Shown: positions 23,717 through 32,559 of the stretch, piece by piece
Layout of the letters: every line of letters starts with the position of its first letter
Numbering within the stretch: position 1 is the first letter of the stretch
From: Armatimonadota bacterium
GTDB taxonomy: Bacteria > Vulcanimicrobiota > JACPDT01
Direction: 5' to 3'
Assembly (NCBI GenBank): GCA_016183865.1
Contig: JACPDT010000317.1
Span: forward strand, 1 to 32,766
DNA: 32,766 nt
Program-made: the position numbers and the translations under genes
The notes under the pieces: model-generated
Databases searched by the model: none
The model's input: only the letters and a program-made list of their open reading frames with translations
Told to the model about the DNA's origin: nothing

Positions 23717-25045
23717 TTAGTAACCCCTGAGCTCGTCCATTCTGCGAAGCTCATCTGCTTCTTCTCTTAGTGCAGCGATCTCCACATCAAACTCGGAATC
23801 CTCTGATGTCGTGAACATGGCTTTGGGCGCAATCTGGTTCAGGTCGTGTTCGGAACCGGTGATCGTCATGGGCGCTGCGCCGTGAAGGGCCTCTTTTCGC
23901 TTGGAATCGTGGCGAGGTCCAAGATAAATCGGATCCACGGATATCCTGGAGCTCCAATCTTCCTGGAAAATGGTCTCGAATTCGCTGTTTACTTCCTTTG
24001 AGATGATATCTGCCCCAGCTTCTCTGTGGACGTGGAAGCCCGCGTGTGTCCAATTGGCGCTTCCCACGATGACGCGATCGCCGTCAAATGCGGCGGCTTT
24101 TGCGTGGAGCTTTTCCGCAGTTTCAGGATTACAGGTGTACCACATCGCCTGGATTCCCGACTGTCTCAGCTCCTGCACAGCTCTTTCGTTTACAGGAAAA
24201 CCGTTTATTCTCAAAGGATGTACAATAACTTTTACATCTACACCGCGCTCATGGGCATCTTTAAGAGCCTGGATCACCGGTTTTGATGTAAGAGCGAAAA
24301 GTTCTGCATGAACTGAGCGCTTTGCTCCAGAGACTGCTTCCAGGACAGCTTCCTCATAAGGGGCGCCGGATTTGGGTCCTGATGTCACGACCCGCACAAG
24401 GGCATTCGCTTCCGGATGCGCGGGGGTCTTATTCATTGCAGGGAGGTCCTCTTTATCGCCTCCAGACTTGATCCAGTCTTGCCGGAAGTTCCGCTTCGCG
24501 TCATCTACGGCAGGACCGACGATTTCCACATCATAATCGTGATTCAGAGGAGAATGTTTGCCCCAGTTCATCCCTCCCAGAATGGCCTGATGCCCGTCTA
24601 TGATCAGCATCTTTACATGACACAACTGGCCTTTTCGTGCAGGATAGAAAAGAACCTCAACGCCGCTCTTCTCAAGCTTCTCTTTGATCTCATCCCGAGG
24701 CGCCTCGAATTTATCATTAGGAGGGTCCATAATGACCTGGACCTTGATTCCTTTCCTGGCTTCCTGGATCAGGAGATCAACCATTTCCGGCTTCTGGAGA
24801 TCATACATCTCGAGCCGTATGGAGGATTCGGCCCCCCGGATCGCTTCTTGTATATGAGCAAAGATCTCGTCCGAAGAGTCGGCAGGAGTGACGCTCTTGC
24901 CGGAAAGAAGGGCAACCTTGTTGCCGCTCAGATAAGAGGAGTCACCTTTGTCTCCTGGGGATCCCGGTTGATCGGACGCCTTCTTGTGTTTCTCCTTTTT
25001 TGGCGCCAGATCGCTGGGAAACGCGGCGCCGATGTTCTGAATCAT
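23717..25045 (-). CDS. Phospholipase D-like protein with two HKD motifs
   Basis: The protein has 442 aa. A disordered N-tail (1 to about 55) precedes two PLDc domains with complete catalytic motifs: HVKMLIID...GGMNW (H143, K145, D150) and HAKAAAFD...GSANW (H314, K316, D321). A charged C-terminal tail of about 70 residues ends in EIAALREEADELRRMDEL. Such proteins hydrolyse or transfer phosphodiester bonds of phospholipids (cardiolipin synthase/PLD type) or, in some families, nucleic acids. There is no transmembrane helix or signal peptide. GAGGG lies about 8 nt before ATG 25045. Copy 2 of the 65-bp repeat lies 31-95 bp upstream of the start and supplies a promoter-like pair pointing at it. The architecture parallels the C-terminal half of the YidD fusion protein. 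Confidence 0.85.
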   Translation of the reverse strand: MIQNIGAAFPSDLAPKKEKHKKASDQPGSPGDKGDSSYLSGNKVALLSGKSVTPADSSDEIFAHIQEAIRGAESSIRLEMYDLQKPEMVDLLIQEARKGIKVQVIMDPPNDKFEAPRDEIKEKLEKSGVEVLFYPARKGQLCHVKMLIIDGHQAILGGMNWGKHSPLNHDYDVEIVGPAVDDAKRNFRQDWIKSGGDKEDLPAMNKTPAHPEANALVRVVTSGPKSGAPYEEAVLEAVSGAKRSVHAELFALTSKPVIQALKDAHERGVDVKVIVHPLRINGFPVNERAVQELRQSGIQAMWYTCNPETAEKLHAKAAAFDGDRVIVGSANWTHAGFHVHREAGADIISKEVNSEFETIFQEDWSSRISVDPIYLGPRHDSKRKEALHGAAPMTITGSEHDLNQIAPKAMFTTSEDSEFDVEIAALREEADELRRMDELRGY

Positions 25046-25729: not shown

Positions 25730-27751
25730 CTATAAGAGCCCTCTAATGGCTTTGTAAATGATTTTCAGGCTCAGTCCATTCATACAGTGTCCGTCCCCTT
25801 CCGGGCAGTCCGTCTGGTAGCTGTCCGCACTGCCCTTCCCGATGCACCCTTTCGCATACTCACAATTCACGTCCGCCTGCAGATGGACTTGTCCCGAGTA
25901 GCCGTAGACTCGATGATCGGTCGGTCCCCAGAGGACGACCGCCGGAATTCCGCACAAATGGGCGGCATGCATGATGAAATTGTCTGATGTGACAACAGCA
26001 TTGAAGCGCCCGACAAGAGAGATCAATTGTCTGGGCGTTGTCAATCCCAGCAGACTGTGGGCTCCCCGGATATAGCGATCCCTCATTCTCCCGGCCTGGA
26101 CGATCCCGATCCCGTCTCGATTCAGAACCTCCACAAGGGATTCCCATCTATCGAGGGCCATCTGTTTTCTGGGAGAATCGGAGCTCTGGCAAACCAGAAC
26201 ATTGCGCTTTTTCCACGGTATGAGGCCAGGGAGAACGGGATCATCCTCCGGCGTCCAGGGGATGTAGAGGAGCTCCGGAACAGGAGTCGCGATGCCGAAC
26301 ATGCGGGCCAGAACCTGATAAGCCCTCTTCCCGTGAAGCTTGTAGTCTTCCTGGTCCCAGTAATTTGTGCCGATGAATCCGGCCCCTGGAGGGGGATGGC
26401 CGATGTGAGCGATTGCCGGGTGGCCCTTAAGAAGAGGAGGATATTTTGTTCGGGAAACCAGGTTGAATTGTCGAGAGGGATCCTGTTCCACAACCTGTTT
26501 CAGGACTCCCGAAATCATCAGGGTATCTCCCAATCCCCCGACGGGGTTGATCCACAAGAGATCTCCGTTTCCCATCGCGGGTTCAAGCTGCCTTTTTCCC
26601 GCAACCTTTGTCCCTTGAAGGTGAAGGGCATTTTCCGCCTGAGCCGGCTCGGCAACCGCCGATTCGCCTCTTACTGTGGGCTCGAAATATTGCTCAATAA
26701 GATCCCTCTTTGCCGCACACCATTCCGTTTTGTGAAGAAATGACCCTGAATGGGACCACGAGTCGAGGGGGCAGCCCCCGTGGCAGATGTTCCAGAACCG
26801 GCAGCCTTTGCATTCCCCCTTGGGTAGAACCTTGTTGCGCTCAAGAAGGGCAGCCCTCTGGGGATCTGCAAAAACCTGGGAAAAGGACTTGTCGAAAACG
26901 GAGCCATAGGGGAGCAGGCCCCAGTCCCCCGAACGGCCGCAATGCGACAGGCTTCCATCGGGCAGCAGGTTCAAGTGCGTATGGGCGCAGGCCCCTGAGT
27001 CGCAGCACATCAATGATGGGCTTCCCTCAAGAAGATTGCGAGTCAGGGAAAAGAAGGGCTCCACCTGGCCATACTGTTCACGGCGCTTCCACCATACGGG
27101 AAAGATCGCCCCGAGAAAATGGGCGTATTCCTCGGGGGTGATTTTCAATTGCCAGGGGTCCCCGCCATAGAGAAGGACAGGGTTGAACATGAATGATCCC
27201 TTCGGGGAGAGGTTGGAAAGAAACTGAAACACCTCGAGGGGTTTCGCCAGAGATCGCCTTGTCACCACATAGATGACTCCCCAACTGAATCCTTCTTCTT
27301 CCACGAGACGGAGAGCCTCCATGAACCTCTTGTTATAGGTCTTTGAGTCGCGTTTGGGCCCCAGACCTCTGATATCTCCTATGGGATCGTAGCTTGTGCC
27401 TATGCTTCGAATTCCCAGCTTTCCAAGAATCTCCGCGAACTTCCGGGAAAAGAGAGTAAGGTTGCTCTGCATATCATGCCTGATGCGGTCGCATGTTTTG
27501 GGGCAATGCTTCTCCTGAAAAGAAAGAGCCTGTGAGAAAAAGTCAGGACCCAGCAAAAGGGGTTCTCCACCGTGCCAGATGATTTCCATGTGCTCTTGGG
27601 GTCGTTCCAGCAGGAACTCATTGATCCGACAAAAGAAGATCTCCAGGGTCTCGGCGGACATGGTGGGTGTACGGGGTTTCTTGCGCACAACGTCGCAATA
27701 GGCGCATCTCCCGTTACATGCCTCCGTGGGCTTGAAAATTACGGTTGCCAT
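25730..27751 (-). CDS. Radical SAM/SPASM maturase fused to GT9 (heptosyltransferase-like) domain
   Basis: The protein has 673 aa; GAGGAG lies 8 nt before ATG 27751. Residues 1 to about 355 are a radical SAM enzyme: CNGRCAYC (C12, C16, C19) for the SAM-binding [4Fe-4S] cluster, WHGGEPLL, and a complete SPASM domain following the CX9-15GX4C ... CX2CX5CX3C ... C rule (C255, C271, C314, C317, C323, C327, C345). Residues about 395-673 form a GT9 domain: INPVGGLGDTLMISGVL, a middle sugar-nucleotide domain, AVVTSDNFIMHAAHLCGIPAVVLWGP and a Cys-rich end. SPASM enzymes of this type modify peptides; GT9 enzymes transfer heptose in LPS or onto proteins. One continuous frame joins the two. It overlaps the upstream gene by 13 nt. 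The predicted substrate is the convergent Tyr-rich peptide. Confidence 0.85.
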   Translation of the reverse strand: MATVIFKPTEACNGRCAYCDVVRKKPRTPTMSAETLEIFFCRINEFLLERPQEHMEIIWHGGEPLLLGPDFFSQALSFQEKHCPKTCDRIRHDMQSNLTLFSRKFAEILGKLGIRSIGTSYDPIGDIRGLGPKRDSKTYNKRFMEALRLVEEEGFSWGVIYVVTRRSLAKPLEVFQFLSNLSPKGSFMFNPVLLYGGDPWQLKITPEEYAHFLGAIFPVWWKRREQYGQVEPFFSLTRNLLEGSPSLMCCDSGACAHTHLNLLPDGSLSHCGRSGDWGLLPYGSVFDKSFSQVFADPQRAALLERNKVLPKGECKGCRFWNICHGGCPLDSWSHSGSFLHKTEWCAAKRDLIEQYFEPTVRGESAVAEPAQAENALHLQGTKVAGKRQLEPAMGNGDLLWINPVGGLGDTLMISGVLKQVVEQDPSRQFNLVSRTKYPPLLKGHPAIAHIGHPPPGAGFIGTNYWDQEDYKLHGKRAYQVLARMFGIATPVPELLYIPWTPEDDPVLPGLIPWKKRNVLVCQSSDSPRKQMALDRWESLVEVLNRDGIGIVQAGRMRDRYIRGAHSLLGLTTPRQLISLVGRFNAVVTSDNFIMHAAHLCGIPAVVLWGPTDHRVYGYSGQVHLQADVNCEYAKGCIGKGSADSYQTDCPEGDGHCMNGLSLKIIYKAIRGLL

Positions 27752-28608
27752 ACCCGCGACTCCTCATTCTGCAGTTTTCGGGCTCTGTTCTGACAGGCTG
27801 TTTCCAACATTTCACGGAAAAAAGCGGAGCACCCATTGTTTCCGGGCTTATTTGGAGCGAATCTTCCAAGGCAAGCTTTCCATCCGACGCAAGAGGCGCA
27901 GTGGTGGTTCTCGGCCAGGAGTCGTCTCCACCTGTTTGTCCTTTCCCTGATCGCTGGAAATTCGGCATCTTCTTCGATTTTTGAGAGATCATGGGCGATG
28001 AACTTCCTTGCCTTGAGATCCCCTCGATACAGCGCCACTCGCCCTGTTGCATCAAGATGCAGAAAATGCCTCGGGTCATCGAACCATATGGACCCCCATT
28101 CCAGGTATGCGGAGGGGTCATAGTTGGAAGCAATGAAGGCAAAAGGCTCGATTGAGGCGTGGGGAACGCGCTCAAGCACGGCATAGGTCATCAAGTCTGT
28201 GAGGGCATCCCAGTCCGTCCCGCCGTCGCCGAAAACCGCGCAAGAGTGAATCCCCACAGAAGACAGGATCCGAAGGGCAACGATATTGTCGGGATGGTTG
28301 CAGGGCAGGTAAACTCGCAGATCAAGATCCCGCAGCAAGTTGAGACCTTTTGCAAGATTGCGGAATTTCCCCAGAGATGGCGCCATGATTGCCAGGGGAG
28401 TTCCTTTCAGGTTTTCCCAGAGGTCGAGGTCGGACAGCGGAGAATCGGATTCCACCATCACGCAAAGGAGGTTGTTCCCGCTTTCTCGCACATGCCTCGC
28501 AGCCTTCTGAGCGTGATGGAGGCCGGTCACCTTCACGGCCACCGTGTATCCCTGAAGGCTTCTCAGCAGGGTCTTGTTATGGGGACAGACGATTTTTGGC
28601 AAGCTCAT
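27739..28608 (-). CDS. Radical-SAM/SPASM-related protein lacking the CxxxCxxC motif
   Basis: The protein has 289 aa. The middle reads like a partial TIM barrel (LNLLRDLDLRVYLPCNHPDNIVALRILSSVGIHSCAVFG, then GGTDWDALTDLM). The C-terminus carries a SPASM-type auxiliary-cluster motif, CASCVGWKAC (CX2CX5C), with a later GCSAFF cysteine. No CxxxCxxC is present near the N-terminus, so it should not bind a SAM-cleaving cluster. It overlaps the neighbouring radical SAM gene by 32 nt and the SPASM-GT9 gene by 13 nt, which indicates tight co-expression and probably complex formation. It may be a non-catalytic partner or peptide-recognition subunit. The annotation rests on the C-terminal motif and context; overall fold is inferred. 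Confidence 0.55.
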   Translation of the reverse strand: MSLPKIVCPHNKTLLRSLQGYTVAVKVTGLHHAQKAARHVRESGNNLLCVMVESDSPLSDLDLWENLKGTPLAIMAPSLGKFRNLAKGLNLLRDLDLRVYLPCNHPDNIVALRILSSVGIHSCAVFGDGGTDWDALTDLMTYAVLERVPHASIEPFAFIASNYDPSAYLEWGSIWFDDPRHFLHLDATGRVALYRGDLKARKFIAHDLSKIEEDAEFPAIRERTNRWRRLLAENHHCASCVGWKACLGRFAPNKPGNNGCSAFFREMLETACQNRARKLQNEESRVWQP

Positions 28609-29605
28609 CCTCGATTTCCGGAAGCCTCACAGGCGCCTCAGGGATAAGGCGGTTCAGGACCTGGCACAGCCCACCCCCGGCGCAAACACAGTCTTCCTGG
28701 TATCTGCAGCCATCGCATTCATCATAAATTCCAGGAATCTCCGCCTTGATCTCATCCCTGAGTTTCCAGAAATGATCCTCGATCTGTTTCATCGAGTTGA
28801 ATTCAAAGAGCGATTTTCTCCGGTAATTGGAAAGGGGAAAGCAGAAATAGACACCCATATCGGGCGATATGTCGCAGGCCGGGCCGCAACCAAACTCGAC
28901 AGCGCCTCTGAAGCGGTGAAGCCATCCCAGCTCCTCATCATTGAACCGACAGATGGGAAATCCGCAGTCCAGTCCGGGCCTGACCCGGAGCGTATCGAAA
29001 AGGGACCGATAGGAGTATAGCCGCTCCACGACATGTCTGATTTCCTTCGGGTGGATGAAACGGCTCCCTGCACCCGGGATGGGGTGGGCGATGCCGATGC
29101 GCAAATGTCGCTTCAAGCCGAAACGGTTGATGAGGTCAAAGAGAAAATCGAGCTTGAAATCGGGGCGATAGATATTGAAGCCCGGACTGACCCAGGGCCC
29201 CATGAGGGAGAGAAAACGTTGGATGCTCCCTGTTTCCTTTTCTGAAGCGGGTGTCTGCGCAGGATCATTCAGGTTGCACACAAGGGAAAATCGGTCTGTG
29301 TTGACATCGCAGAGGTGATGCTTGAGCTCTTCGAGCCTGGAGGGGCTCAGGATTCCATTCGTGAAGACTGTAACATCAAAGCCTCGTTCCAGCAGATAGA
29401 GGACAAAATCAACAAATTCGGGGTGTACCGTCGGCTCCCCGCCCAGAAGGGACAAATGCCTCTCCCCTGATGCCTTGAGGAAATCCGCGATGTAGATGAG
29501 GTTCTCCCAGGACATGCGAATCCCGGTGTCCCCCGACATTTCTTCCTTTGCGAAACAATAGGGACAGGAGCGGTTGCACCGTGTGGTAAGAAGTATATTC
29601 GCCAT
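28577..29605 (-). CDS. Radical SAM protein with SPASM/twitch-like C-terminus
   Basis: The protein has 342 aa. TTRCNRSCPYC gives the CxxxCxxC cluster ligands (C10, C14, C17), followed by the core motifs LSLLGGEPTVHPEF and VTVFTNGIL. The C-terminal part has CGPACDISPDMGVYFC and CDGCRYQEDCVCAGGGLC, enough cysteines for at least one auxiliary cluster. This pattern is common in peptide- and protein-modifying radical SAM enzymes. The ATG has no convincing SD and is preceded by a 13-bp hairpin directly after the PKD gene's stop. It is the second gene of the PKD-rSAM-SPASM-like-rSAM/GT9 series; its role may be a second modification of the Tyr-rich peptide or of another substrate. Confidence 0.82.
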   Translation of the reverse strand: MANILLTTRCNRSCPYCFAKEEMSGDTGIRMSWENLIYIADFLKASGERHLSLLGGEPTVHPEFVDFVLYLLERGFDVTVFTNGILSPSRLEELKHHLCDVNTDRFSLVCNLNDPAQTPASEKETGSIQRFLSLMGPWVSPGFNIYRPDFKLDFLFDLINRFGLKRHLRIGIAHPIPGAGSRFIHPKEIRHVVERLYSYRSLFDTLRVRPGLDCGFPICRFNDEELGWLHRFRGAVEFGCGPACDISPDMGVYFCFPLSNYRRKSLFEFNSMKQIEDHFWKLRDEIKAEIPGIYDECDGCRYQEDCVCAGGGLCQVLNRLIPEAPVRLPEIEDELAKNRLSP

Positions 29606-30534: not shown

Positions 30535-32559
30535 TTACAGGCTGGCGCTCGGCCGTCGGGGCCTGTCGTTCACCAGGCGTGTTCCCTGACCGACAAGCTT
30601 CATCACATTCTGCTGGAGAAATGCGGGGGCACTGTTCGCGGCGATTTGAAGGAGGGTGTTCCATCTGAAAGGTGGCGGCACGTCCCACTCAACCTTGAAT
30701 TCGGCTCCGGAGGCCGCGTCATGTTCAAATTCAGATTCAAAAACCGTCTTTAGATGCCGGGCAAGGTCAGGGTCCGATATCCGCAAATTCAGCTCCTTGT
30801 TCAAGTAGAAAGCCTGCGGCGTCCAGTCGCACGAACCTGCAAGAACTATCTCATCGTCGAAAAGGGCCATTTTTGTGTGAAAGTGGCGCCGGCAGTCGTC
30901 GGGTGAGCGCTTTTCATCCTTGAAGATTCGCGTCTCCACGCCCGATTCCGTCAGTCTCTCCCATGCTTCCCTGTTGACCGGAGCATTCGAAAGAAGAACC
31001 CGTATCTTCACACCCCCCTGGTGTGCTTCGATCAGCTCATTCACTACATTTTTGTCCGTGAGCCAGTACATTCCCACATCTATGGATTTCTTTGCCTCCC
31101 TGATGCTCCGGTTCACGTGTTCCGCGATTCTATCGTTTCCCGGCTTGCTTCCCACGATCTCGACGGCGGGGCTTTGATCGTAGTGAATCACGTAGCGGGG
31201 TGTGCCGCCCGATTCTCTCCAATCTTCCTCAAAGAGCCTGCGGGTTTCATTTACAGTATCGCCTGTGACAAGAAAGGAGAGATCAAAGTTCTCATTTTTT
31301 CCGAACATCTCGCCCCAGTTCTTGCTGCCCACGATGGCCGCTTTGTCGTCAATAATGGCCAGTTTCGTGTGATTGAACTGCCAGAGGGACTTCGTGATCG
31401 GATATTCCAGAACGGCAGCCCCTGCGGCCCGAAGATCATCCATGGTTTTGCGGTGTATTTCTTCATCCTTTTCAGACCAGCCGAGAGGATTGTTCATGAT
31501 CCGGACTTTCACTCCCTCTGCCAGCTTCTCTTTCAACAGGTCAGCCATGATTGTGCTCTTGAAGGAGAACATCTCCACGTCAATGGAACGGACGGCTGAG
31601 CGGACCAGACTCAGTGCCGCGGGGTCAATCGCCTCATTCGAGAGGGGAACCAGGGTCGTAGCTCCGACTTTGAAGGCAGGCTTGTCCCCCAGCCCGATGG
31701 AGCCGGGGTCGAAGGGTTCAGGGGGCTCGGCCTGGCCTTTCTCCGTGGTGTTCCTTTCCTTCTCCCCATGAAAAACGGAATCCCCGAACAAACGGCCATA
31801 TTGGCTGCCGATCTCAAACCCTTTTCGTCCGCCGCGATAAAGGCCGACAACGAGGCCAAGGGGGGTGCCGATCACCATTCCCGCCGCGTTTGCAATCGCG
31901 TTGCTCCCCGTCGTTTCCTCCAGGAATTCGTGAATTCTGTAAGTCGGTTTTGCAAGAGTATTTTCGATCTTGCCGAATCCGTACACCGATTCAGGTGAGT
32001 ATTTGCACGCAATCTCTGCATTCACATCGTCAATCTTGTCTCTGGCCGCCCTGTCCGAGAGATAGGCGCCAAGGCCGGCGCCGACAGTTCCCATCAATGC
32101 CGCCCCTGCCAGGCCGCCTGCCAGGGTGACCGCCGCTCGGCCCAGACGCTCCAGATATCCCTTTTCGGTGGTCCCTGTTGACTCTTGCGGCTTCCTGTTT
32201 TCGGAAGTATTCCTCAGATAATGGGTCTCATAAGAGAAAATCTTTTCACCAGGTTCATACCGGTAATTCATGTGGGCAGGCACGAAGTCGTGCCCATGAC
32301 CTGACTCCTGGTGGGAGACGACGGGGTCTTCGCCGCCGGAAGCGGTCTTGTGGCAGCGCATCATACGCATGAAGCCCATGGTGCCGCCCTTGAAGAGTCC
32401 GTATTCCTTCACCGCTTCCAGGGTGTATTGGGAGCATGATGGAGTATACTTACAGCCATAATTTCGGTCATCCCGCAGGCCTGCCGAAACATGCTTCTGG
32501 TACTTCCTGATGGCCCAGACGCCGAATTTGCCGAGCACTGGAGAGACAGGATCTCGCAT
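30535..32559 (-). CDS. YidD-glycine-zipper-phospholipase D fusion protein
   Basis: The protein has 674 aa. Residues 1 to about 82 match YidD, the membrane-protein insertion efficiency factor: AIRKYQKHVSAGL, CKYTPSCSQYTLEAVKEYG, FKGG and MMRCH, with the three conserved cysteines C36, C42 and C69. Residues about 138-265 hold two Gly/Ala-rich hydrophobic stretches of glycine-zipper type (TLAGGLAGAALMGTVGAGLGAYL; AGMVIGTPLGLVVGLYRGGRKG). Residues about 295-620 hold two PLDc domains with full HKD motifs: NHTKLAIID (H397, K399, D404) and HTKMALFD (H561, K563, D568). No SD precedes ATG 32559; a promoter 6 nt upstream implies a leaderless mRNA. YidD is normally a separate protein of about 70-90 aa near yidC, so this fusion is unusual. 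It probably recruits PLD activity to the inner membrane. Confidence 0.88.
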   Translation of the reverse strand: MRDPVSPVLGKFGVWAIRKYQKHVSAGLRDDRNYGCKYTPSCSQYTLEAVKEYGLFKGGTMGFMRMMRCHKTASGGEDPVVSHQESGHGHDFVPAHMNYRYEPGEKIFSYETHYLRNTSENRKPQESTGTTEKGYLERLGRAAVTLAGGLAGAALMGTVGAGLGAYLSDRAARDKIDDVNAEIACKYSPESVYGFGKIENTLAKPTYRIHEFLEETTGSNAIANAAGMVIGTPLGLVVGLYRGGRKGFEIGSQYGRLFGDSVFHGEKERNTTEKGQAEPPEPFDPGSIGLGDKPAFKVGATTLVPLSNEAIDPAALSLVRSAVRSIDVEMFSFKSTIMADLLKEKLAEGVKVRIMNNPLGWSEKDEEIHRKTMDDLRAAGAAVLEYPITKSLWQFNHTKLAIIDDKAAIVGSKNWGEMFGKNENFDLSFLVTGDTVNETRRLFEEDWRESGGTPRYVIHYDQSPAVEIVGSKPGNDRIAEHVNRSIREAKKSIDVGMYWLTDKNVVNELIEAHQGGVKIRVLLSNAPVNREAWERLTESGVETRIFKDEKRSPDDCRRHFHTKMALFDDEIVLAGSCDWTPQAFYLNKELNLRISDPDLARHLKTVFESEFEHDAASGAEFKVEWDVPPPFRWNTLLQIAANSAPAFLQQNVMKLVGQGTRLVNDRPRRPSASL

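What the first reader, a model, noticed from the sequence alone, without database searches (positions are those of the whole stretch)
30535..32559. YidD fused to a glycine-zipper membrane segment and a two-HKD phospholipase D
Seen: all three YidD cysteines and its core motifs, then Gly-zipper stretches, then two complete HKD motifs, in one 674-codon frame. YidD is normally a short protein that helps YidC-dependent insertion. Tethering it to a PLD suggests lipid remodelling (for example cardiolipin synthesis) at insertion sites, or a membrane-disrupting effector that uses YidD as a targeting domain.
Basis: partly seen in the sequence, partly recalled or inferred. Interest (0 to 1): 0.78.

Follow-up and report, generated by a model that had tools for sequence, protein, structure and literature searches.

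The report
YidD-zipper module fused to phospholipase D
In a group of uncultured Eremiobacterota bacteria, a diverged copy of the small membrane-insertion helper YidD plus two glycine-rich helices has become a reusable module that is joined to enzymes, here a phospholipase D and elsewhere a clostripain-type protease, apparently to place those enzymes on membranes.

Summary
It reads YidD (Pfam E 3e-20), then two glycine-rich helices, then a PLD with two intact HKD motifs. It is not an artefact: the same full-length protein occurs in two other Eremiobacterota families (44-49% identity), and the genome has a normal yidD beside rnpA, yidC and jag.

The fusion is one member of a wider family. In 149 Eremiobacterota genomes, 17 copies of the YidD + two-helix module occur in 10 genomes. 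Eleven carry an N-terminal clostripain-fold (C11) domain, three a C-terminal PLD, and three stand alone. The fused YidD domains form one clade (98/89). All lack the C-x-P-W-type motif kept by 46 of 47 ordinary YidDs of the phylum.

Most likely the module is a self-inserting membrane anchor that holds enzymes at the membrane (0.45). Rivals are an exported glycine-zipper effector (0.30) and a membrane-bound nuclease (0.13). The cardiolipin-synthase reading is not supported: scores lie far below the curated cut-off, and another Cls-like PLD exists in the genome. Function is inferred; no enzyme, lipid or localisation was tested.

The parts
30535..32559 (-). Gene for the 674-aa YidD / paired Gly-rich helix / phospholipase D fusion
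   Evidence: one open frame; full-length relatives in G008 (668 aa) and G017 (first 690 aa of an 1851-aa protein), 44-49% identical
32320..32520 (-). YidD domain, residues 14-80, all three cysteines kept, C-x-P-W-type motif lost
   Evidence: Pfam PF01809 E 3e-20; motif count; fused YidDs form one clade 98/89
32044..32163 (-). Gly-rich helix 1 (residues 133-172)
   Evidence: AF2 helix 133-172, block pLDDT 64 to 93; aligned in all module copies
31903..32043 (-). Conserved linker between the two Gly-rich helices (residues 173-219), mostly helical
   Evidence: YSPESVYGF-x-KIEN identical in the three PLD-type proteins; helix 189-217
31771..31902 (-). Gly-zipper helix 2 (residues 220-263)
   Evidence: 8 GxxxG pairs, shuffled mean 1.9, P 5e-5; AF2 helix 220-263
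30721..31674 (-). Two-lobed phospholipase D domain (residues 296-613)
   Evidence: PLDc_2 x2; fold match to 7e0m, Z 32.2 over 317 residues
31348..31371 (-). HKD motif 1, residues 397-404 (HTKLAIID)
   Evidence: H, K and D identical in all three PLD-type proteins
30856..30879 (-). HKD motif 2, residues 561-568 (HTKMALFD)
   Evidence: H, K and D identical in all three PLD-type proteins

Best explanation
The protein is one member of an Eremiobacterota family built on a portable membrane module: a diverged YidD domain followed by two long Gly-rich helices joined by a conserved linker. The module most likely inserts into or clamps onto the inner membrane. YidD would act in cis on the zipper helices, perhaps through the YidC route without a signal peptide, and the helices would form a two-span hairpin with both ends on the cytoplasmic side. 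That would let an enzyme be attached at either end: clostripain-fold protease before it, phospholipase D after it. In this protein the PLD would then work on a phosphodiester at the membrane surface, most simply phospholipid head groups. Shown: domain order, module unity, recurrence, single clade of the YidD parts, intact HKDs, predicted fold. Inferred: membrane insertion, topology, role of YidC, substrate.
For: The order YidD, helix 1, linker, helix 2 is the same in the module copies, whichever enzyme is attached and whichever end it is on. Two AF2 models from different alignments give the same helix pattern for the module: 40, 11, 29 and 44 residues in the PLD type and 46, 11, 29 and 47 in the C11 type; the two alignments share module sequences, so they are not fully independent. 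Hydropathy peaks of TM length occur in at least one and usually both Gly-rich segments. Flanks are mostly positively charged while the linker is near neutral in most copies (weak). The N-termini of the PLD and C11 forms do not look like Sec signals by eye. Three stand-alone modules exist, one of them divergent from a separate C11 gene (L039), a split form of the fusion. The fused YidDs are a single clade.
Against: No localisation or topology data. The charge pattern is only weakly consistent and the linker is positive in some copies. The fused YidD has lost the C-x-P-W-type motif, so cooperation with YidC may also be lost. One C11-type copy has lost its catalytic Cys and His (L044) and stand-alone modules exist, so the module may do more than anchor an enzyme. 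Zipper helices also occur in pore-forming toxins and effectors.
Confidence: 0.45

Rival explanations
1. The YidD-zipper module is a translocation or membrane-permeabilising part of an exported antibacterial or predatory effector; the swapped enzymes (PLD, C11) are its payloads, and the zipper helices help it enter a target membrane.
For: Enzyme swapping on one delivery-like module. A Gly zipper is needed for target-cell entry of the T6SS effector Tde1 (PMC10240207), and Gly-zipper proteins kill on contact in Caulobacter (PMC5380434). C11 and PLD families are expanded in these genomes, 13-32 C11 matches in most and about ten PLD proteins, several with polar non-Sec leaders. Flagellar-type export gates are multi-copy. 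An Eremiobacterota family with large genomes is suspected of predation (PMC9259500).
Against: No T6SS sheath protein VipB in 12 genomes and a phage-type sheath in only one. Both full export gates of the own genome lie in flagellar-type clusters as read by eye. No gene recognisable as immunity lies beside the window gene. The YidD-PLD itself lacks the polar leader seen on other PLDs.
Confidence: 0.3
2. The PLD part is a nuclease held at the membrane, used on incoming DNA or RNA (uptake or phage defence).
For: The best family scores are mixed: NucT 85.1 bits and DrmC 58.1 bits beside cardiolipin synthase 73.6; PADLOC DrmC model E 4.3e-23. Fold neighbours include PLD3/PLD4 exonucleases.
Against: All are below curated cut-offs (NucT 211, DrmC 133). 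No defence genes were recognised around the PLD-type loci among the few neighbours examined; no dedicated search was made.
Confidence: 0.13
3. It is a cardiolipin synthase or similar lipid-making enzyme with an unusual anchor, working at membrane-insertion sites.
For: Two HKDs in one chain; distant similarity to cardiolipin synthases.
Against: Cardiolipin-synthase model score far below its cut-off (73.6 against 290). HKD2 context GSCDWTPQAF instead of GSHNLDPRSF, which is present in another PLD (L097) of the same genome.
Confidence: 0.08
4. Assembly or gene-prediction artefact joining yidD to a PLD gene.
For: The window is a whole contig of 32,766 bases of a 353-contig assembly and the gene starts 207 bases from its end.
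Against: The same full-length protein occurs in two other genomes and a separate normal yidD is present.
Confidence: 0.01

Closest known systems
YidD, membrane protein insertion efficiency factor (PF01809, TIGR00278)
   Same: Profile match above curated cut-off, three cysteines, N-terminal helix
   Different: Fused to other domains, not in the rnpA-yidC locus, separate clade, C-x-P-W-type motif lost
Two-HKD phospholipase D enzymes (for example the one of PDB entry 7e0m)
   Same: Fold (Z 32.2, rmsd 2.9 over 317 residues) and both HKD motifs
   Different: 18% identity; carries the YidD-zipper module; substrate unknown
Peptidase C11 (clostripain) proteins fused to the same module in related genomes
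   Same: Same YidD-zipper module, same clade of bacteria; one such protein is in this very genome (L051)
   Different: Protease instead of PLD and at the other end; beside a second C11 gene and often a Cys-repeat peptide gene
Gly-zipper effectors such as Tde1 and Gly-zipper bacteriocins CdzC/CdzD
   Same: GxxxG-rich stretches suited to membrane insertion
   Different: No YidD domain reported; other enzymes or none; delivered by T6SS or T1SS, the T6SS sheath not being found here

Membership tests
YidD (PF01809 / TIGR00278) | Score above curated cut-off | tested here: met
   72.2 bits against 27 and 61.6 against 40
YidD (PF01809 / TIGR00278) | Three conserved cysteines | tested here: met
   Invariant columns in A1
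YidD (PF01809 / TIGR00278) | C-x-P-[WYLFG] motif after third cysteine | tested here: not met
   46 of 47 stand-alone YidDs in the phylum have it, 0 of 18 fused
YidD (PF01809 / TIGR00278) | Small stand-alone protein beside rnpA and yidC | tested here: not met
   That place is taken by another gene, L001; here a domain of a 674-aa protein
YidD (PF01809 / TIGR00278) | Helps YidC-dependent membrane insertion | not testable with these tools
   Needs expression work
Phospholipase D superfamily | Two HxKx4D motifs in a two-lobed fold | tested here: met
   Residues 397 and 561; fold match
Cardiolipin synthase (TIGR04265) | Score above equivalog cut-off | tested here: not met
   73.6 bits against 290
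Nuclease NucT | Score above equivalog cut-off | tested here: not met
   85.1 bits against 211
DISARM DrmC | Score above equivalog cut-off | tested here: not met
   58.1 bits against 133
Glycine-zipper secreted effector (Tde1-like) | Run of GxxxG motifs | tested here: met
   Zipper 2: 8 GxxxG, P 5e-5; membrane activity itself not tested
Glycine-zipper secreted effector (Tde1-like) | Type VI secretion system present | tested here: not met
   No VipB in 12 genomes
Glycine-zipper secreted effector (Tde1-like) | Cognate immunity gene alongside | tested here: inconclusive
   No recognisable immunity gene; a 339-aa Gly-rich protein overlaps the end of the G008 gene, function unknown

The most novel reading that the evidence does not exclude
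The YidD-zipper unit is a portable self-inserting delivery module that carries enzymes into or through membranes, including those of other cells. In the C11 branch it acts with a second C11 protease on a co-encoded Cys-repeat peptide, making a previously undescribed peptide-processing or attack system of uncultured Eremiobacterota.
Probability: 0.2. Interest if true: 0.85.

Novelty: new variant of a known kind. Interest (0 to 1): 0.58.

Why it matters
YidD is very widespread but its molecular role is poorly understood and it is known as a lone small protein. Here evolution has reused it as one half of a membrane module that works with different enzymes. Fusions of this kind give a direct way to ask what YidD does: the zipper helices next to it are candidate substrates in cis, and the enzyme is a built-in reporter. 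It also marks a family of possibly membrane-placed proteases and phospholipases in a phylum that includes suspected predators rich in peptide natural products.

Tried and rejected
Artefact: rejected by two independent full-length relatives. Phage or plasmid origin: no relative covering 80% of the protein in phage or plasmid records; the best places listed matched only the PLD half; no confirmed relative of A3 or A4 in viral contigs. Search of 84,980 species genomes with short peptide patterns found nothing for the single protein and one relative for the PLD-type alignment, on a contig of the same length as that of G008, which names the phylum; these pattern scans reach close relatives only, so absence elsewhere is not shown. 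A search of another phylum through a plasmid locus was not accepted by the tool. Functional link to the radical SAM genes downstream in the window: not supported, they have no relatives beside the other two PLD-type genes; the rSAM-like stretch in the G017 fusion protein may be coincidence. A FlgM-like N-terminal motif as a general export leader: enriched but thin evidence (5 of 220 N-terminal stretches against 2 of 573 internal ones), noted only. PHROGs gave no useful name. No solved structure resembles the module by sequence; VIA-align was run on the whole model, where the PLD fills the list, so nothing can be said on the fold of the module. Papers: nothing seen on YidD fusions among the listed results in the held library; the main YidD paper (Yu et al. 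2011, cited in PMC8082313) is not held.

Full report
What is there. The gene lies on the minus strand, ATG at 32559 and stop at 30535, 674 codons; the plus strand of this stretch has several stops. Residues 14-80 match YidD (Pfam E 3e-20; TIGR00278 61.6 bits, cut-off 40), residues from about 296 to 613 are a two-lobed PLD with HKD motifs at 397 and 561. In between lie two long Gly-rich helices with a conserved linker. An AlphaFold2 model (mean pLDDT 76.7) gives helices 133-172, 189-217 and 220-263, and the PLD part matches solved PLDs (7e0m, Z 32.2, rmsd 2.9 over 317 residues). The stretch 87-132 has pLDDT under 50. The second Gly helix is a clear zipper (8 GxxxG against 1.9 shuffled, P 5e-5); the first is Gly-rich only, in this protein.

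It is not an artefact. The window is a whole contig (C108) of a 4.4 Mb genome in 353 contigs. The same architecture, collinear over the full length, is found in G008 (668 aa) and as the first 690 residues of an 1851-aa protein in G017, 44 and 49% identical. The own genome also has an ordinary 78-aa YidD in the usual place between rnpA and yidC, with jag (rnpA, yidC and jag recognised by eye). A contig of the same length as that of G008 and holding the relative is titled Candidatus Eremiobacterota, which names the phylum.

It is part of a family. The own genome holds a second YidD fusion, 709 aa: clostripain-fold protease (Peptidase C11, E 5.7e-21), YidD, two Gly-rich helices. A search of the phylum found many more long YidD proteins, and these were read. 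A profile of the YidD + two-helix module over 149 Eremiobacterota genomes gives 17 copies at 200 bits or more in 10 genomes of seven families; the next match is 90 bits and covers only the YidD part. Fifteen of the 17 were used to build the profile, so their scores are by construction; the point is the gap below them. Of the 17, eleven have C11 in front, three (window, G008, G017) have PLD behind, three stand alone. An eighteenth protein (L047) has YidD in front and a weak C11-like stretch behind, without a clear module.

The fused YidDs are a distinct subfamily. In a tree of 65 YidD domains of the phylum they form one group (98/89; 99% of bootstrap trees), though with only 80 columns. The motif C-x-P-[WYLFG] after the third cysteine is kept in 46 of 47 stand-alone YidDs and absent in all 18 fused ones.

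Context. The PLD-type genes have no shared neighbours. In the window the gene is followed by a PKD-domain protein, radical SAM genes and, 5.5 kb on, a second two-HKD PLD without YidD (23717-25045). The C11-type genes do have a recurring setting: a second C11 gene near 8 of 11 and, directly upstream of 7 of 11, a small protein of tandem Cys-containing repeats whose core varies from genome to genome. Relatives of that peptide turned up almost only in genomes with such loci (one weak match elsewhere). In G028 the module is a separate gene divergent from a separate C11 gene (L039), which supports functional coupling of module and enzyme.

Wider setting. C11 matches number 13-32 in 11 of the 12 genomes searched (2 in one), and PLD proteins about ten per genome in five searched. 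Several have polar, non-Sec N-termini. FlhA-type export gates are multi-copy, with many stand-alone C-domain copies; the two full copies of the own genome are in flagellar-type clusters as read by eye. T6SS VipB is absent from the 12 genomes. A related Eremiobacterota family with 8 Mb genomes, Ca. Eudoremicrobiaceae, is rich in natural-product clusters and suspected of predation (PMC9259500); whether f11 here is that family was not tested.

How it most likely works. The invariant order YidD, helix, linker, helix with an enzyme at either end is what one expects of a two-span hairpin with both ends on one side of the membrane. Glycine-rich hairpins such as the ATP synthase c subunit are classic YidC clients (own knowledge), and E. 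coli YidD has a reported role in membrane protein insertion (Yu et al. 2011, known here only through PMC8082313). So the simplest reading is a self-inserting anchor, with YidD acting in cis, that puts a protease or a phospholipase on the inner face of the membrane. Hydropathy fits, charge distribution fits weakly. The loss of the C-x-P-W-type motif, the inactive C11 of L044 and the stand-alone copies speak for a role of the module itself and keep the effector or pore reading alive. The cardiolipin idea is disfavoured by family scores and by a separate Cls-like PLD with the usual motif. The PLD substrate cannot be told from sequence: lipid and nuclease families score alike and all lie below cut-off.

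Verdict. Observation confirmed with corrections; interpretation partly supported; a new variant built of known domains, not found described in the papers searched, and seen in one phylum only as far as could be searched.

Noticed in passing
L051:2722-3087 (+), L043:1-294, L040:4659-5570, L041:8602-9024, L042:8604-9200, L035:8555-8923, L048:5400-5744: Small proteins of tandem repeats, each with cysteine (for example SSKDFPPDCLFGSETAK, GNPSHHTCTTADTALA), directly upstream of C11-YidD genes; the core differs between genomes. Possible multi-core peptide substrate of the C11 proteases.
   Followed up: partly
window 23717-25045 (-): A second two-HKD PLD, 442 aa, without YidD and without an evident Sec signal, about 30% identical to the PLD of the G017 fusion.
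   Followed up: partly
L038:8996-14551: In G017 the YidD-PLD protein continues for about 1150 residues with a weak radical SAM match and a weak nucleoside phosphorylase match, all in one frame.
   Followed up: no
G000, G002, G008, G012, G016, G017, G026, G028, G032, G038, G044, G048: FlhA/SctV export-gate family is strikingly expanded: often 2-3 full-length copies plus many stand-alone cytosolic C-domains (up to 19 matches in one genome).
   Followed up: partly
L036:4271-5290, L036:7914-8402, L039:7288-8583, L125, L130, L112, L123: Several C11, PLD and Gly-zipper proteins share a polar N-terminus ending in a D-x-V-x-[IL]-[SG]-like motif that resembles FlgM; it may be an export leader.
   Followed up: partly
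L097, L100, L112: A separate Cls-like PLD family with an N-terminal Gly-rich segment but no YidD occurs in the same three genomes as the YidD-PLD.
   Followed up: partly
window 25730-29605 (-): Cluster of radical SAM genes, one coding for a SPASM-type radical SAM protein fused to a glycosyltransferase family 9 domain, downstream of the fusion gene.
   Followed up: no
L035:6466-8550; L044:5938-7788: One C11-YidD gene (G032) is interrupted by a stop between YidD and the zipper helices; another (L044) has lost the C11 catalytic Cys and His.
   Followed up: no
L039:4636-6219 and L045:7373-8929: Two of the stand-alone YidD-zipper genes have weakly related proteins nearby (22.6% identity), one of them with a WD40-type propeller match.
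   Followed up: no
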